NCBI GenBank assembly: GCA_024276075.1
Contig: JAJRXX010000076.1
Coordinates: 1 to 64,000, forward strand
Origin: Planctomycetota bacterium
GTDB taxonomy: Bacteria > Planctomycetota > Phycisphaerae > Phycisphaerales > Phycisphaeraceae
Length of the DNA: 64,000 nucleotides
Reading direction: 5' to 3'
The notes beneath the pieces were generated by a model. The model was not told the DNA's origin and ran no database searches. It worked only from the letters and a program-made list of their open reading frames with translations. Positions 38,976 through 54,564 of the stretch are shown here, piece by piece (positions within the stretch are counted from its first letter, which is position 1; the number at the start of each line of letters is the position of its first letter). Made by a program: the position numbers and the translations under genes.

Positions 38976-40316
38976 GTGAATTGGCGAACTCTAATACCGG
39001 TTATGGCAATAGTTTGCGGCGCGATTGCGGGTTGTCACACGACGCGGGATAGCAGCCAAGCCACCGTCGAATCCGTGCCTCATGTGGTTACAGCAGACAT
39101 ACAGGCCGGCATCGAAAAACACATCGAAGAGCAGTCCCGGTTAGGCGGAGGCTATTTCAAACTCCCGTTTAAGGACCGTGAACTTCGTCTTAAGCTCGTC
39201 CGCGTCCACACCGAATACCTGTCAAACCTGGGCCCTCGCCGCCACTTCGCCTGCGTGGATATGGCGAGTACCGAAGGCGAAGTCTACGACGTCGATTTTT
39301 TCCTTGCGGGTGATCCCGGCGCGATGACCGTCACAGAAACCACCGTCCACAAGATCAACGGCCAACCCTTTTATGTATGGAAGCAAAAGTTTGATAAATC
39401 GTGGCGACGCGTCCCGGTAAAAAACGCATCGCAACAACTGCTGGGCGTCATCACCGGCCGTGACGAGTTCGAGTTCTTATATCAAGCCACGCTGCCGGAA
39501 ATGACCCATGCAGCTCGCATGTGGATGCCCATGCCCGCCACCGATTCGTTTCAGACCGTCGCCGTAAAATCCATCACCGCCCCCGGCCAACGGAAATTTC
39601 TGAAGGATCAAGAATTCGGGAATAAGGTCCTTTTCCTGACACTTGGCCCGGAAGATAGCGGGAAAACGATCGCAATCCGCTTTCAGGTACAACGCATTGA
39701 GAAGACCGTCTATCCAGCAAATACGCTGACGCCTCAGGACTATCTCAAGCCCGAACGGCTTGTGCCGACCGATGAGGAGATACGCGACATCGCCGCCGAG
39801 GTCGTAAAGAACAAGAAGAGTGATCTGGTTCGCGCAAGGGCCCTCTACGGCCATGTCATCGACCGCATGCGCTACATGAAATTTGGCTCGGGCTGGGGCA
39901 ATGGCGATGCGGTTTATGCCTGTGATTCACGCACGGGCAACTGTACTGATTTTCACTCGTACTTTATCGCCTTGGCCAGGGCTGCCGACATCCCCGCTCG
40001 CTTCGCCATCGGCGCAGCCATCCCGTCGGAGAGGAATGACGGCGGAATCGACGGCTACCACTGCTGGGCAGAATTCTACGCTGACGGTAATTGGTGGCCC
40101 GTTGACATCAGTGAGGGCGACAAGTGCTCTAGCCTGATGACCTATTACTTCGGGCACCACCCAGCGAACCGTATCGAATTCAGCCGCGGCCGCGACTTGG
40201 TGGTCGAGCCGGGCCCGGTGTCAGGCCCGATCAATTTCCTTGCCTACCCTGTGCTAGAGGTCGGCGGCAAACCGACCCGCGTGAAGGTTAACTTTTCATT
40301 TAAACGAGGTGCGTGA
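38976..40316 (+). CDS. Secreted transglutaminase-like lipoprotein
   Basis: 446 residues with a GTG start and an AAAGGG site. The N-terminal signal ends in the lipobox IAGC (Cys20), so it is a predicted envelope lipoprotein. The C-terminal third is a transglutaminase core with a complete triad: Cys323 in GNCTDFHSYF, His362 in GYHCWAEFY and Asp377 in WWPVDISEG. Bacterial members act as proteases or cross-linking enzymes. The first 270 residues form an uncharacterised beta-rich domain. Confidence 0.85.
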   Translation: MNWRTLIPVMAIVCGAIAGCHTTRDSSQATVESVPHVVTADIQAGIEKHIEEQSRLGGGYFKLPFKDRELRLKLVRVHTEYLSNLGPRRHFACVDMASTEGEVYDVDFFLAGDPGAMTVTETTVHKINGQPFYVWKQKFDKSWRRVPVKNASQQLLGVITGRDEFEFLYQATLPEMTHAARMWMPMPATDSFQTVAVKSITAPGQRKFLKDQEFGNKVLFLTLGPEDSGKTIAIRFQVQRIEKTVYPANTLTPQDYLKPERLVPTDEEIRDIAAEVVKNKKSDLVRARALYGHVIDRMRYMKFGSGWGNGDAVYACDSRTGNCTDFHSYFIALARAADIPARFAIGAAIPSERNDGGIDGYHCWAEFYADGNWWPVDISEGDKCSSLMTYYFGHHPANRIEFSRGRDLVVEPGPVSGPINFLAYPVLEVGGKPTRVKVNFSFKRGA

Positions 40317-40406
40317 CAGGGGAAGATAAAGAAGATAAGGTTCCTGGAGAAGATAAGGCGACACCTTTCCCATCCACTTTTTTCTCTCAAATCATGAGGC
40401 CGCAAA

Positions 40407-41393
40407 ATGAAAGTCTGCCCAATATGCTGGGACCTATATGACGATCGGACACATGATTCATGTCCGAACAGGAAGTGCGGAAAGGGAGCTACAGAGAAGG
40501 CAAGAGCCGTGCCCTCGCCAATAACTAGTCCTGTCCTGCTACGTCGAATGCCCTTGAAACAGAATCAGAAGATAAGGCCACCCGCCCCCATCCGTCAGAA
40601 AAAGGGGCCTATCCTGCCCGAGAGGCGGCCATCCTCCTCAACGCTTTCCAAGCCTAAAGTTACACCACTGACGGAAAAGACAACTACGACAATAACTACG
40701 CACTCTGTCGAGTACCCTGAATGCTCCATTTGCCTCGAAAATGACGAGCCGATCTTCGACTACCCCTGCTGCAAATACTCCGCGTGCAAAGGCTGCGTTA
40801 GCGAATATCCCTGGAACCCCGGCGCACCGGGACAGATATTTTGCCCGGGATGTAAAAAAGAACTTCAGCCCGAGCTTTTCGAAGGTTATGTGTCAGATCA
40901 GAAAATCAAAGATGTTCTAAAAATACGGGAGATAGCGAGGGCGAACTTCAAACTAGTTAAGAAGTCAGACCCCAAGAGTCTGGCTTGGGGTGGGATGCGG
41001 CAGTGCACCAATCTGGAATGTGATTTTTTTATACTGCTCGAAGGCGGCTGCAACACGATTACTTGCCAGTGCCGCCGGTTATTTTGCGTAATCCGAGGCA
41101 AAGAAGATAACAAGGGCGACCATACCTTTTCGCTGTCCAGTTTCATGGCTAAAGTGAAGAAAACCCACAAAAGAACTGCGCTTAAAACCTTACTTATGGA
41201 CAGAGAATTATGTTCTGCGGAGTGGCATAGTCTGTACCTCGATGAGCTATTTCTGGAACTCGCCGCAGCCGAGTGCGACGAAATAGCGGTAGACAAAGTG
41301 CTAGAGGGATATTTTGGGGATTGGCCAGGTTTCAAGGCATGTGTGCGTCACATTGCGCTGACCGAGAAAGACCTGGCACGGTATTTTAAGTAA
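40407..41393 (+). CDS. RING/IBR-like multi-zinc protein (eukaryote-like)
   Basis: 328 residues. Three Cys-rich parts are seen: an N-terminal knuckle (CPIC...CPNRKC, residues 4-24); a RING-like cluster (Cys106, 109, 121, 122, 127, 130, 146, 149) with all-Cys ligands as in C4C4 RINGs; and a segment around residues 195-227 reading WGGMRQC, then GGCNTITCQCRRLFC, which strongly recalls the IBR/RING2 part of RBR ubiquitin ligases, including the Gly-Cys-Asn where RBR enzymes carry the catalytic Cys. A Pro/Thr/Lys-rich linker (30-100) separates the parts. GC is about 51% over a 540-base sample, lower than neighbours. GAGG site before the ATG. Ubiquitin-ligase activity is not established; no ubiquitin, E1 or E2 gene is present here. 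Confidence 0.7.
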   Translation: MKVCPICWDLYDDRTHDSCPNRKCGKGATEKARAVPSPITSPVLLRRMPLKQNQKIRPPAPIRQKKGPILPERRPSSSTLSKPKVTPLTEKTTTTITTHSVEYPECSICLENDEPIFDYPCCKYSACKGCVSEYPWNPGAPGQIFCPGCKKELQPELFEGYVSDQKIKDVLKIREIARANFKLVKKSDPKSLAWGGMRQCTNLECDFFILLEGGCNTITCQCRRLFCVIRGKEDNKGDHTFSLSSFMAKVKKTHKRTALKTLLMDRELCSAEWHSLYLDELFLELAAAECDEIAVDKVLEGYFGDWPGFKACVRHIALTEKDLARYFK

Positions 41394-50580: not shown

Positions 50581-51090
50581 GCGTGATATTCCATGCAATC
50601 GTGCCGCGTGTGTCGCAAGGGGGGGGGGTAGGCCCCCAAAACGCATTGCGGCGGTGGTGACAAAGTGCTCCGTTCATGTTCCGGCAGGGTTCTGACTCAA
50701 AATAACCCTCCATAACCACAGGGCCTGAGGTTGCGCGGATCAAAATCCGCAATTCCGGCATTAAGCTGGGTGAGTTCAAGCAGATTGGATGCTATTAGAG
50801 GACCAGATTTGAGAGGAATACGTCGAAAAACAATGAAATAACCCTAGGCGCCGTCTTGGGTTGCTGGTAGCATAACAGGTCATCAATCCATGCCACTTTT
50901 GGCGCAGGAGGAGATGGAACATATCGGTTAGAACATCGCAAGGTGCATTTTGCCAGGCTCGCCCAGGAGGTATTGATTGGGGTGGATCGGGCGTCCACGG
51001 GTGCATGTAGGCACCGTCATTCGGGTTGTTCTTGCCCGGGTGTGTTTAAGCGTACCGTTTGGTTTGTTGTTAGTGGAGGCCCCCCCCGTT

Positions 51091-54000
51091 ATGCAAAGAT
51101 TTATGTCATTACGTCGTGTGAGTACAACCGCAGTTTGTCTTGTGCTTGTGGCTAGCTTCACCGTTCCCGTCCACGCGGCGAACCGCTTCTGGGACGGCAC
51201 CGGCGGCAACGATCTGTGGAACAACTCAGCTAACTGGTCCGGTGGCAACCCTCCCGGGTTTGGGGTTGGCGATGACGTGTTCTTTGATGATAACGTTGCA
51301 GGCGTGGGACAGACCGAGGTCAATGTCAATGTGAACCAAGCGGTCGACTCGATCACGATTAGAAGCGATATCAACTACCTCCTGTTCGGGGGCAGCTTCC
51401 TGACGCTGCAGGGGGCGGGCAACGTCGTCCAGTCCTTTACAGACGGGGCCGGGCCCGCTATCCACACCATCAACAATAAGATCAATATACAGTCCAACGG
51501 TACCTGGGTGATCCAGACGGGGGCCGACCTTGTTGTGAATGGGGTCATCTCCAATATGGCCGGGCCCGGGCAGGTCTTTTCTGTGACGAAGACCGGTGCC
51601 GGCAAGCTCACGCTCACTGGAAACAACACCTATGGTGGCGGGACGGTGGTTTCCGGGGGCAGGCTCGTGGTCAATACCGGTTCGTTGCCCACCGCTAACG
51701 GTGTTACGGTTAATAATGCGTTCCTCGAGTTTAATCAGAGCGCCAACGGGACGTACTCCGGTGTGATCTCCGGGAACGCTAGCGGGCGGGTGGACAAGAC
51801 GGGTAACGGCAAACTCACGCTCACAGCCAACAACAGCGGCTTCACCGGTGGGGTGAACGTCAATGGCGGGACACTGGAGATCGGCGGCTCAACAGAAACC
51901 CTCAACAACAACTCGGCGGTGACGGTCGCCGGCGGGGCCACCCTGCGGATCGCCGGAGATGGCGAGGGGTTCGGCAGCCTCGCCGGGGCCGGCAACGCTG
52001 TCCTTGCAAGCCCCATGATTGTCGGGATCAACAACGCCAGCACGACCTTCTCCGGGTCGCTGTCCGGCGGCGCCACCTTCGCCAAGAGAGGCACGGGCAC
52101 CATGAAACTCACCGGGAACAACAGCGGGTTTACCGGACTCGTTGAGGTCAAACAAGGGACGCTGGAAGTCGGTGTCAACGATTCCTTGGGCAGCGTGACC
52201 CCGGTCACGGTCGCCAACGGGGCCACCCTGCGCATCGCGGGTAACGGGGAGTTATTCGGGAGCGTCGCCGGGACCGGCAACGTCGTGATGACCCAGCCCA
52301 TGAGTGTCGGGGTTAATAATCAGTCCACCACCTTATCCGGGGTGTTATCCGGGTCTGGACTCTTCACCAAGGCCGGAACCGGCACCATGACGCTCTCGGG
52401 GGCCAACACCCACACCGGGGGCACGCAGATCCTTGCCGGGACGCTGGCGATCGCCGGGGGCAGCACACCGTCTTCATTGACTGAGATTTTGTCGAACGGG
52501 ACGCTCCTGGTCAACGGTGGCACGTTCAACGCCAACGGTGACGTGAACGTCAACGGCGGCTCGCTTACCCGTGCCTCAGGCAGCTTCAACCTCGCGGCGG
52601 GCAAGACCCTCACCGCCTCCAACAACGCGCAGGTTAGCTTCACCGGGCTTTACAACATCGCAAACGGCACCACGTTCAACTTTAACTCCGGCGCTGACTT
52701 GATGCTCGACGTCTTCCTACAGGTCGCGATCGGGAACAACGCAGTCGGGACGCTCAATGTGTCCGGTGGATCCACCGTCACCAGCACCGGGGGCGACGTA
52801 GCGGGGTCCGCAGGTTCCAATGGGATCGTCACCATCACGGGTGAGAACTCTATCTGGCAGACGACCAGCACCCTGTTTCTCGCAACCGATACAAACACCG
52901 TTGGCACGATCGATATCGAAAATAAGGGCCATATGACAAATGGGGCGGCTCTTATAGGCTCCGGGACAACGGCTATGGCCAGGGTGACGGTGACGGGCGA
53001 TCAGTCAAACTGGATGAGCCAAGGGAATATCAATTTAGGGCCATCGGGCTCCGACGGTCAGATCATTGTTAAGGATCTCGCCGTCGCTGAGACCTCCGGC
53101 ACCCTGACGGTCTTCCCCACCGGCAAACTTACCGTCGACACTGGCGGCACGTTCAACGCCAACGGAGGGATCAATAACAGCGGGGTCGTGCAGCTGCTGG
53201 GCAGCCAGATCAACACGTCAAACTTCGTTAACACCGGGACGTTTACCCACCAGGACGGGACGCTTACTGTCAACGGAGGCACGTTCGACCCGGGAACCGC
53301 GAGCCATATCATCGACGGGGCTGATACGGCTGATCTGCCGGTCGTGAAGCTCATCAACGGGGCGTCGGCAACCCTCAGCGGGCAACTGCGCGTGGGGTCC
53401 AATTTCAACGGGGAGTTGCGCCTCGAGAACGGATCGATCATGGACGTGGGGTCCGCGGCGGTGTTCGGAGACTTTGCGGGCAGCCACGGGACGGTGGTCA
53501 TCGACGGATCGACCCTAAACATCACCGGTCTTCTGGTTACCGGACAGCGTACGGATTCCAAAGGCGGCGATATCACGATCCGCAACGGCGGGGCCCTGAC
53601 AGCCGGCGGCGTTCAGTTCGCCAGCGGGAACGGGACCAATATTCCCATTACTCGGCTCACCGTCGACGGGGCAACGTCTTCGGTGACTAGCACCGTTAAC
53701 CTGGACATCGGCGGCGGCGGGCTGGGGGACCTGTTCCTCAAAAACGGGGGTGTCGCGAACGCGACCAATACGCTGCACATCTTCCCCAACGGGCGGCTGA
53801 TCGGCAATGGGCAGGTCAACGCCAACCTCGTGCGTGTCTTCGCCTCCACTACTGCGCAAGGTATGGTCAACCCCGGCCAGACCGGGCAAACCGGCCGACT
53901 AGCCATTAACGGGAATTACCTCCAAGAATCTGACGCCGTCCTGCAACTCGACATCGCAGGTACTAGCGGCTCCGGCATCCCCAACGGGAATGACCTCCTC

Positions 54001-54564
54001 ACAATCACTGCAAACGCCGCGCTTAACGGCACACTCGACGTCCAGGTTGACCCCGGTTTCACCCCCGCCTACGGCAACACGTTTGAGATCCTCACCTACG
54101 GCTCACGCACGGGTGCGTTCGACCAAGCCACCGTCAATGGCTCCATACTCGCACTACAGACCGATCTGGCCCTTGCACCCGTCTATGATTTCCCCGGATC
54201 AACCGATCCTCTGTTCGCTGCTACACCGTTTGCCGCTGCGCCCGATAGCCTGATGCTCTTTACCACGCTTCCCGGCGACGCCAACCTCGACCTCCAAGTC
54301 GAAGACGCCGACCTGAGCTTGCTGTTGACCAATTTCGGCAACACGGACGCACCCTGGACCGCCGGCGACTTCACCGGCGACGGAATTGTTGATGATGCGG
54401 ACCTGAGCCTGCTGCTGACAAACTTCGGGGGGGATGTACGAAGCCCATTCAGCAGCACTGGTCTCTCAATAAACGTTGTCACCATCCCCGAGCCCGCCAC
54501 GCTCACCCTGTTCTCGCTGGGTTGCCTGCTGCTGGCACGGCGTCGGGCTGCAAATGGCGATTAG
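51091..54564 (+). CDS. Giant strand-repeat surface protein with dockerin-like region and PEP-CTERM
   Basis: 1157 residues from the ATG at 51091 (GTGGAGG site upstream). A signal peptide ends VPVHAA. The mature start RFWDGTGGNDLWNNSANW is a common opening. Next come autotransporter-type strand repeats (TKTGAGKLTLTGNNTYGGGT, then TGNGKLTLTANNSGFTGG, and others) and PEP-CTERM-associated repeats (GTLNVSGGSTV, ITGENSIW). A dockerin-like pair follows (GDANLDLQVEDADLSLLLTNF and GDFTGDGIVDDADLSLLLTNF). The protein ends with IPEPATLTLFSLGCLLLARRR, a PEP-CTERM sorting signal. No passenger enzyme domain is visible; it is probably an adhesin or cell-surface structural protein. Confidence 0.88.
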   Translation: MQRFMSLRRVSTTAVCLVLVASFTVPVHAANRFWDGTGGNDLWNNSANWSGGNPPGFGVGDDVFFDDNVAGVGQTEVNVNVNQAVDSITIRSDINYLLFGGSFLTLQGAGNVVQSFTDGAGPAIHTINNKINIQSNGTWVIQTGADLVVNGVISNMAGPGQVFSVTKTGAGKLTLTGNNTYGGGTVVSGGRLVVNTGSLPTANGVTVNNAFLEFNQSANGTYSGVISGNASGRVDKTGNGKLTLTANNSGFTGGVNVNGGTLEIGGSTETLNNNSAVTVAGGATLRIAGDGEGFGSLAGAGNAVLASPMIVGINNASTTFSGSLSGGATFAKRGTGTMKLTGNNSGFTGLVEVKQGTLEVGVNDSLGSVTPVTVANGATLRIAGNGELFGSVAGTGNVVMTQPMSVGVNNQSTTLSGVLSGSGLFTKAGTGTMTLSGANTHTGGTQILAGTLAIAGGSTPSSLTEILSNGTLLVNGGTFNANGDVNVNGGSLTRASGSFNLAAGKTLTASNNAQVSFTGLYNIANGTTFNFNSGADLMLDVFLQVAIGNNAVGTLNVSGGSTVTSTGGDVAGSAGSNGIVTITGENSIWQTTSTLFLATDTNTVGTIDIENKGHMTNGAALIGSGTTAMARVTVTGDQSNWMSQGNINLGPSGSDGQIIVKDLAVAETSGTLTVFPTGKLTVDTGGTFNANGGINNSGVVQLLGSQINTSNFVNTGTFTHQDGTLTVNGGTFDPGTASHIIDGADTADLPVVKLINGASATLSGQLRVGSNFNGELRLENGSIMDVGSAAVFGDFAGSHGTVVIDGSTLNITGLLVTGQRTDSKGGDITIRNGGALTAGGVQFASGNGTNIPITRLTVDGATSSVTSTVNLDIGGGGLGDLFLKNGGVANATNTLHIFPNGRLIGNGQVNANLVRVFASTTAQGMVNPGQTGQTGRLAINGNYLQESDAVLQLDIAGTSGSGIPNGNDLLTITANAALNGTLDVQVDPGFTPAYGNTFEILTYGSRTGAFDQATVNGSILALQTDLALAPVYDFPGSTDPLFAATPFAAAPDSLMLFTTLPGDANLDLQVEDADLSLLLTNFGNTDAPWTAGDFTGDGIVDDADLSLLLTNFGGDVRSPFSSTGLSINVVTIPEPATLTLFSLGCLLLARRRAANGD

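What the first reader, a model, noticed from the sequence alone, without database searches (positions are those of the whole stretch)
40407..41393. Bacterial protein resembling RING-IBR-RING ubiquitin ligases
An eight-Cys RING-like cluster of C4C4 layout precedes a WGGMRQC...GGCNTITCQC...FC segment that mimics the RBR RING2, where the Gly-Cys-Asn Cys (Cys215) carries ubiquitin in eukaryotes. Such proteins are rare in bacteria. GC of about 51% in a sample suggests later arrival. It has no signal peptide, so it would act in the cytoplasm or be delivered by another route.
Basis: partly seen in the sequence, partly recalled or inferred. Interest (0 to 1): 0.85.

Follow-up and report, generated by a model that had tools for sequence, protein, structure and literature searches.

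The report
Bacterial RING plus RING2-like protein, no IBR
A flagellated bacterium carries one foreign-looking gene whose protein joins a RING finger to a piece resembling the catalytic end of eukaryotic RING-between-RING ubiquitin ligases; the middle domain and two catalytic helper residues are missing, so it is probably a stripped-down or worn relative and not a full enzyme of that kind.

Summary
It has an N-terminal CxxC...C-x4-C pair, an eight-Cys RING (C106-C149), a 50-residue stretch without Cys or His, and a RING2-like block (residues 197-239) with Cys215 in GGCN. A RING2 profile built without this protein scores it at 26.9 bits; none of 2000 Cys-fixed shuffles reach that. It does not match the IBR profile. 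The only whole-genome hits for RING (PF13920) and for IBR_1 both fall on this ORF. The gene is foreign-looking and absent from 50 same-family genomes and a 392-genome phylum sample.

It is not a member of the RBR family: the IBR is absent, the catalytic His and Glu positions are Thr217 and Leu225, and one zinc ligand of the second site is Arg230. No E2 or ubiquitin was found in the genome (the E2 search is not conclusive). The only type III export gate found is flagellar. Structure models were too poor to use. Most likely it is a horizontally acquired, IBR-less RBR relative that could recruit a eukaryotic E2; activity is open. Complete RBR proteins do occur in a few other bacteria.

The parts
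40396..40399 (+). Shine-Dalgarno-like GAGG, 7 nt before the ATG
   Evidence: read from sequence
40407..41393 (+). 328-aa RING + RING2-like protein gene
   Evidence: open frame; lowest GC/GC3 of listed ORFs; most deviant codon use of 25 window genes
40416..40478 (+). N-terminal CxxC...C-x4-C (C4, C7, C19, C24), probable zinc ribbon
   Evidence: sequence; no family match
40494..40706 (+). Pro/Lys/Thr-rich, probably unstructured linker (residues 30-100)
   Evidence: sequence; inference
40713..40865 (+). RING-like finger, residues 103-153, eight Cys (C4C4, adjacent CC pair)
   Evidence: PF13920 E=7e-4, 19.8 bits, gathering 27; only PF13920 match in the whole genome, E=7.7e-5
40866..40991 (+). Linker without Cys/His (residues 154-195), where an RBR would carry its IBR
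   Evidence: sequence; IBR profile match not significant
40992..41126 (+). RING2-like block (residues 196-240): C200, C205, C215, C220, C222, C227, H239
   Evidence: RING2 profile 26.9 bits at 197-239, 0/2000 shuffles; blastp to L026 RBR
41049..41051 (+). Cys215 codon (TGC), equivalent of the RBR catalytic Cys
   Evidence: alignment with L026-L028 and ARIH1/2
41139..41390 (+). C-terminal region, residues 245-328, no family match
   Evidence: no Pfam/NCBIfam/PHROG/PADLOC match; helices only in a useless model

Best explanation
This is a horizontally acquired, IBR-less relative of eukaryotic RING-between-RING (TRIAD) ubiquitin ligases. The RING would fold around two zinc ions and dock a ubiquitin-loaded E2 (inferred). 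The RING2-like block keeps its first zinc site and the catalytic-position Cys215 (shown in sequence). It lacks the His, the Glu and a second-site zinc ligand, so any Cys215 thioester step would be slow or lost, and the protein more likely acts as a RING-type scaffold (inferred). No ubiquitin or E2 was found in the genome, so the only plausible substrate system is that of a eukaryote in contact with the bacterium, such as a grazing protist (inferred). How the protein would get there is unknown.
For: RING2 profile (ARIH1, ARIH2, L026-L028; query excluded) 26.9 bits; 0/2000 Cys-fixed shuffles (max 20.9) and 0/2000 free shuffles (max 10.2) reach it. Next best of 1289 window frames: 11.6 bits. Without L026 the profile still gives 19.3 bits at 204-229, 0/2000. 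Pairwise blastp with the L026 RBR 28/96 identities, E=3e-9; hhalign probability 90.7. A1, the set of RBRs used, is genuinely RBR: ARIH2 E=2e-31. RING: PF13920 E=7e-4 and sole genome match; IBR_1's sole genome match is in the same ORF. Foreign: GC/GC3 lowest of listed ORFs, codon use most deviant, no relative in 51 family or 392 phylum genomes. Ubiquitin not found.
Against: Every curated Pfam match is below gathering. Part of the RING2 score comes from the motif that drew attention: a chance motif match (L025) scores 18.5 bits. With a profile of the two human sequences alone the best match is the RING, not the RING2-like block. The RBR-RING1 profile gives only 9.4 bits (4/2000 Cys-fixed shuffles) while other window frames reach 11.2. 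The C-x4-C spacing at C200-C205 is unlike the C-x2-C of the RING2s in the profile, though the IBRs there and L030 have C-x4-C. No usable structure. No delivery route found.
Confidence: 0.5

Rival explanations
1. A decaying or functionless acquisition: an RBR-type gene entered this lineage recently, lost its IBR and catalytic helpers, and has not yet been removed.
For: Missing IBR, T217 and L225 in place of His and Glu, R230 in place of a zinc Cys; single genome of 51 in the family; foreign composition.
Against: 328 codons remain open with a good start context; all eight RING Cys and the first RING2 zinc site are intact.
Confidence: 0.25
2. An unrelated array of zinc ribbons (nucleic-acid or protein-binding adaptor) that resembles RING and RING2 by convergence on spaced Cys.
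For: Pfam matches below gathering; zinc-ribbon proteins of the phylum also give weak IBR_1 hits; the N-terminal CxxC...C-x4-C is ribbon-like; human-only profile does not pick the block.
Against: Cys-fixed shuffles do not reach the RING2 score; RING and RING2-like blocks lie in the right order in one ORF, each the only genome match of its model; the motif is almost confined to RBR-like proteins in the genome collection.
Confidence: 0.17
3. Part of an endogenous bacterial ubiquitin-like conjugation pathway.
For: A RING-like E3 candidate exists; bacterial pathways with E1/E2-like proteins are known (established knowledge; also PMC4327156).
Against: No UQ_con (but no control genome rang, so weak) and no ubiquitin family match; neighbours are ordinary genes (transglutaminase-like protein, rpiB); no relatives keep it. 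Bacterial E2-like and JAB families were not searched.
Confidence: 0.03
4. Assembly artefact: a piece of eukaryotic DNA joined into a bacterial contig.
For: The genome is a draft of 77 contigs; scaffolds that look chimeric and carry RBR pieces do occur (L027).
Against: The ORF is intronless, has a Shine-Dalgarno-like site, and sits 90 nt after a bacterial gene with 71% identical relatives in the family and 119 nt before rpiB, inside an 81.7-kb contig.
Confidence: 0.05

Closest known systems
RBR (RING1-IBR-RING2, TRIAD) E3 ligases, for example ARIH1/HHARI, ARIH2, parkin
   Same: RING followed by a RING2-like block with Cys in GGCN, first zinc site, xFC motif
   Different: No IBR; Thr at the His position; Leu at the Glu position; Arg at one site-II Cys; RING has Cys at the fourth ligand and a CC pair
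RBR protein of MAG 'bacterium isolate nzgw202' (L026 103-1722, minus strand)
   Same: 28/96 identities over linker and RING2; both lack the last Cys of FCxxC
   Different: L026 has RING1, IBR and RING2, His after GCN, and a 300-residue N-terminal region
Parendozoicomonas short RING2/IBR-like ORF (L030 1608-1796)
   Same: C-x4-C...GCNxMxCxCx3FC block, 30% identity in the alignment
   Different: 63-aa ORF with no RING seen upstream
Bacterial RING/U-box proteins, for example Parachlamydiaceae NEX1b (PMC4209131) and the Simkania RING E3 (PMC12591485)
   Same: RING finger in a bacterium without its own ubiquitin system
   Different: No RING2-like block described in the passages read; those organisms are intracellular; this one shows no injectisome export gate

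Membership tests
RBR E3 ligase | RING1 able to bind E2~ubiquitin | tested here: inconclusive
   Generic RING profile E=7e-4, below gathering; RBR-RING1 profile only 9.4 bits
RBR E3 ligase | IBR domain between the two RING domains | tested here: not met
   No Cys/His between C149 and C200; IBR profile 3.1 bits, reached by 156/2000 Cys-fixed shuffles
RBR E3 ligase | RING2 with first zinc site and catalytic Cys | tested here: met
   C200, C205, C220, C222 and C215 align with RING2; 26.9 bits, 0/2000 shuffles; sequence level only
RBR E3 ligase | His two residues after the Cys and Glu before FC (catalytic triad of parkin, PMC3730226) | tested here: not met
   T217 and L225 at these places
RBR E3 ligase | Second RING2 zinc site (C372, C375, H382, C389 in HHARI, PMC3772753) | tested here: not met
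   C227 and possibly H239 only; R230 at the second Cys
RBR E3 ligase | Cys-ubiquitin thioester and transfer | not testable with these tools
   needs biochemistry
RING-type E3 | Eight zinc ligands in RING spacing | tested here: met
   C106 C109 C121 C122 C127 C130 C146 C149; fourth ligand is Cys and adjacent to the third
RING-type E3 | Curated family score | tested here: not met
   PF13920 19.8 bits against 27; 24.4 bits in the genome search
RING-type E3 | E2 binding | not testable with these tools
   needs biochemistry

The most novel reading that the evidence does not exclude
A working minimal RING-RING2 ligase without an IBR, carried by a flagellated bacterium with no detected ubiquitin, which modifies proteins of a eukaryote it meets using Cys215 without the usual His-Glu helpers.
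Probability: 0.1. Interest if true: 0.85.

Novelty: new variant of a known kind. Interest (0 to 1): 0.5.

Why it matters
RBR ligases are generally regarded as eukaryotic. A RING plus RING2-like protein in a bacterium that shows no sign of an intracellular life would be a natural test of how much of the RBR machine is needed for E2 recruitment or ubiquitin transfer. Together with complete RBR proteins seen here in an Endozoicomonas plasmid and another bacterial MAG, it suggests that RBR genes reach bacteria now and then; none of the papers found here describes bacterial RBRs. If it is only a worn import, it matters little.

Tried and rejected
Homologue searches that found nothing: viral contigs, genome contigs, phages and plasmids. 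The weak phylum hits inspected were rubredoxin or matches in frames without sense. IBR_1 hits in 84 phylum genomes: those inspected are ordinary CxxC zinc-ribbon proteins. AlphaFold2 alone (pLDDT 33) and with four RING2 fragments (pLDDT 44) was too poor. The element order in the second model, a short helix and four strands, is like that described for HHARI RING2, but the Foldseek hits, ARIH2 among them at E=7, are meaningless. A mixed alignment with RING1 fragments misaligned them onto RING2 and was dropped. A repeat element near the start was looked for: the 171-nt upstream stretch is unique in the genome. Synteny: the 658-aa gene next to rpiB is a neighbour in many relatives, but the transglutaminase-like gene and this gene are not.

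Full report
Observation. The ORF is at 40407-41393 on the + strand, 328 aa, ATG start with GAGG 7 nt upstream. The protein has an N-terminal CxxC...C-x4-C (C4, C7, C19, C24), a Pro/Lys/Thr-rich linker, an eight-Cys RING-like finger (C106-C149), and after 50 residues without Cys or His a RING2-like block (C200-H239). A C-terminal 84-residue region matches nothing.

Is it more than chance? Pfam gives PF13920 (RING) E=7e-4 and IBR_1 E=0.04, both below gathering. In a search of the whole 2.88-Mb genome, PF13920 has one match, and it is this ORF; IBR_1 also has one match, the same ORF. The DNA pattern for GGCNx[I/M]xCxCx3FC was found at 6 places in 257 Gb of bacterial and archaeal genomes. L026 encodes a complete RBR, L028 another, L027 an RBR piece, and L030 a short ORF that passes the IBR gathering score. 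L025 and L029 look like chance. A RING2 profile from ARIH1, ARIH2 and L026-L028 scores this protein at 26.9 bits over residues 197-239. None of 2000 shuffles with Cys fixed (max 20.9) or of 2000 free shuffles (max 10.2) reach it, and the next best of 1289 window frames has 11.6 bits. As a caution, the chance motif match in L025 scores 18.5, so much of the score is the motif itself. Leaving out L026 the score is 19.3 (0/2000), but a profile of the two human sequences alone matches the RING instead. The IBR profile does not match (3.1 bits, 156/2000) and the RBR-RING1 profile is weak (9.4 bits, 4/2000). Direct comparison with L026's RBR gives 28/96 identities, E=3e-9 for the pair, and hhalign against A1 gives probability 90.7. 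A1 itself is RBR beyond doubt (ARIH2, E=2e-31).

What is missing. RBR ligases transfer ubiquitin through a RING2 Cys. In parkin, mutation of His433 and Glu444 reduces activity (PMC3730226). HHARI RING2 needs zinc to fold, and its second site is C372, C375, H382, C389 (PMC3772753). Here the His place is Thr217, the Glu place is Leu225, and the second-site Cys is Arg230. L026 also lacks that last Cys (FCYID), so its loss is not unique. There is no IBR. By the membership test this is therefore not an RBR; it may still work like part of one.

Origin. GC is 49.6% and GC3 54%, the lowest of the listed ORFs, and codon use is the most deviant of 25 window genes. No relative was found in 50 other genomes of the family or in the phylum sample (weak hits spurious where inspected). 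The flanks are bacterial: a transglutaminase-like gene with 71% identical relatives but a patchy distribution upstream, and rpiB with its usual convergent neighbour downstream. A recent acquisition fits best. The donor is unknown. The organism's name is not given by the tools.

Partners and delivery. No ubiquitin family match and no UQ_con match were found, though the latter search has no positive control. The one FHIPEP gene lies beside ORFs that read as flhB and flhF and is flagellar, and flagellins are in the window, so by this marker no injectisome is present. Type IV and VI systems were not searched.

Structure. Both AlphaFold2 runs were low confidence, and the fold search gave nothing usable. 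The structural claim therefore rests on sequence only.

Wider context. A tblastn search with L026's RBR found a complete, unannotated RBR in an Endozoicomonas plasmid (CP092490.1). Bacterial RING/U-box proteins are described for Chlamydiae (PMC4209131; PMC12591485). In the library searched I found no paper that reports bacterial RBR proteins; subscription journals are mostly not held.

Verdict. Novelty: new variant of a known kind.

Noticed in passing
L079 1748-3172 (Endozoicomonas sp. Mp262 plasmid CP092490.1): Unannotated 475-aa open frame with a complete RING1-IBR-RING2, a second partial RING/IBR before it, and a hydrophobic stretch near the N-terminus that may be a signal peptide.
   Followed up: partly
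L026 103-1722 (minus strand): Complete RBR in a bacterial MAG (nzgw202) with a long N-terminal region; a clostripain-like protein (by eye) is encoded next to it.
   Followed up: partly
L030 1608-1796: 63-aa Parendozoicomonas ORF that is little more than an IBR/RING2-like block (PF01485 E=1.4e-6).
   Followed up: partly
L027, L028: RBR sequences in contigs filed as Rhodobacterales and Prosthecobacter; runs of N or poly-Ser suggest chimeric or eukaryotic contamination.
   Followed up: no
window 38976-40316: Transglutaminase-core protein just upstream, patchily distributed (6 of 51 genomes, own included) yet 67-71% identical in four of the five others, so possibly also transferred.
   Followed up: partly
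window 40330-40362 and 40567-40581: AGAAGATAAGG repeated three times, twice before and once inside the gene; unexplained.
   Followed up: partly
window 50977-54564: 1195-aa protein with passenger-associated (autotransporter) repeats.
   Followed up: no
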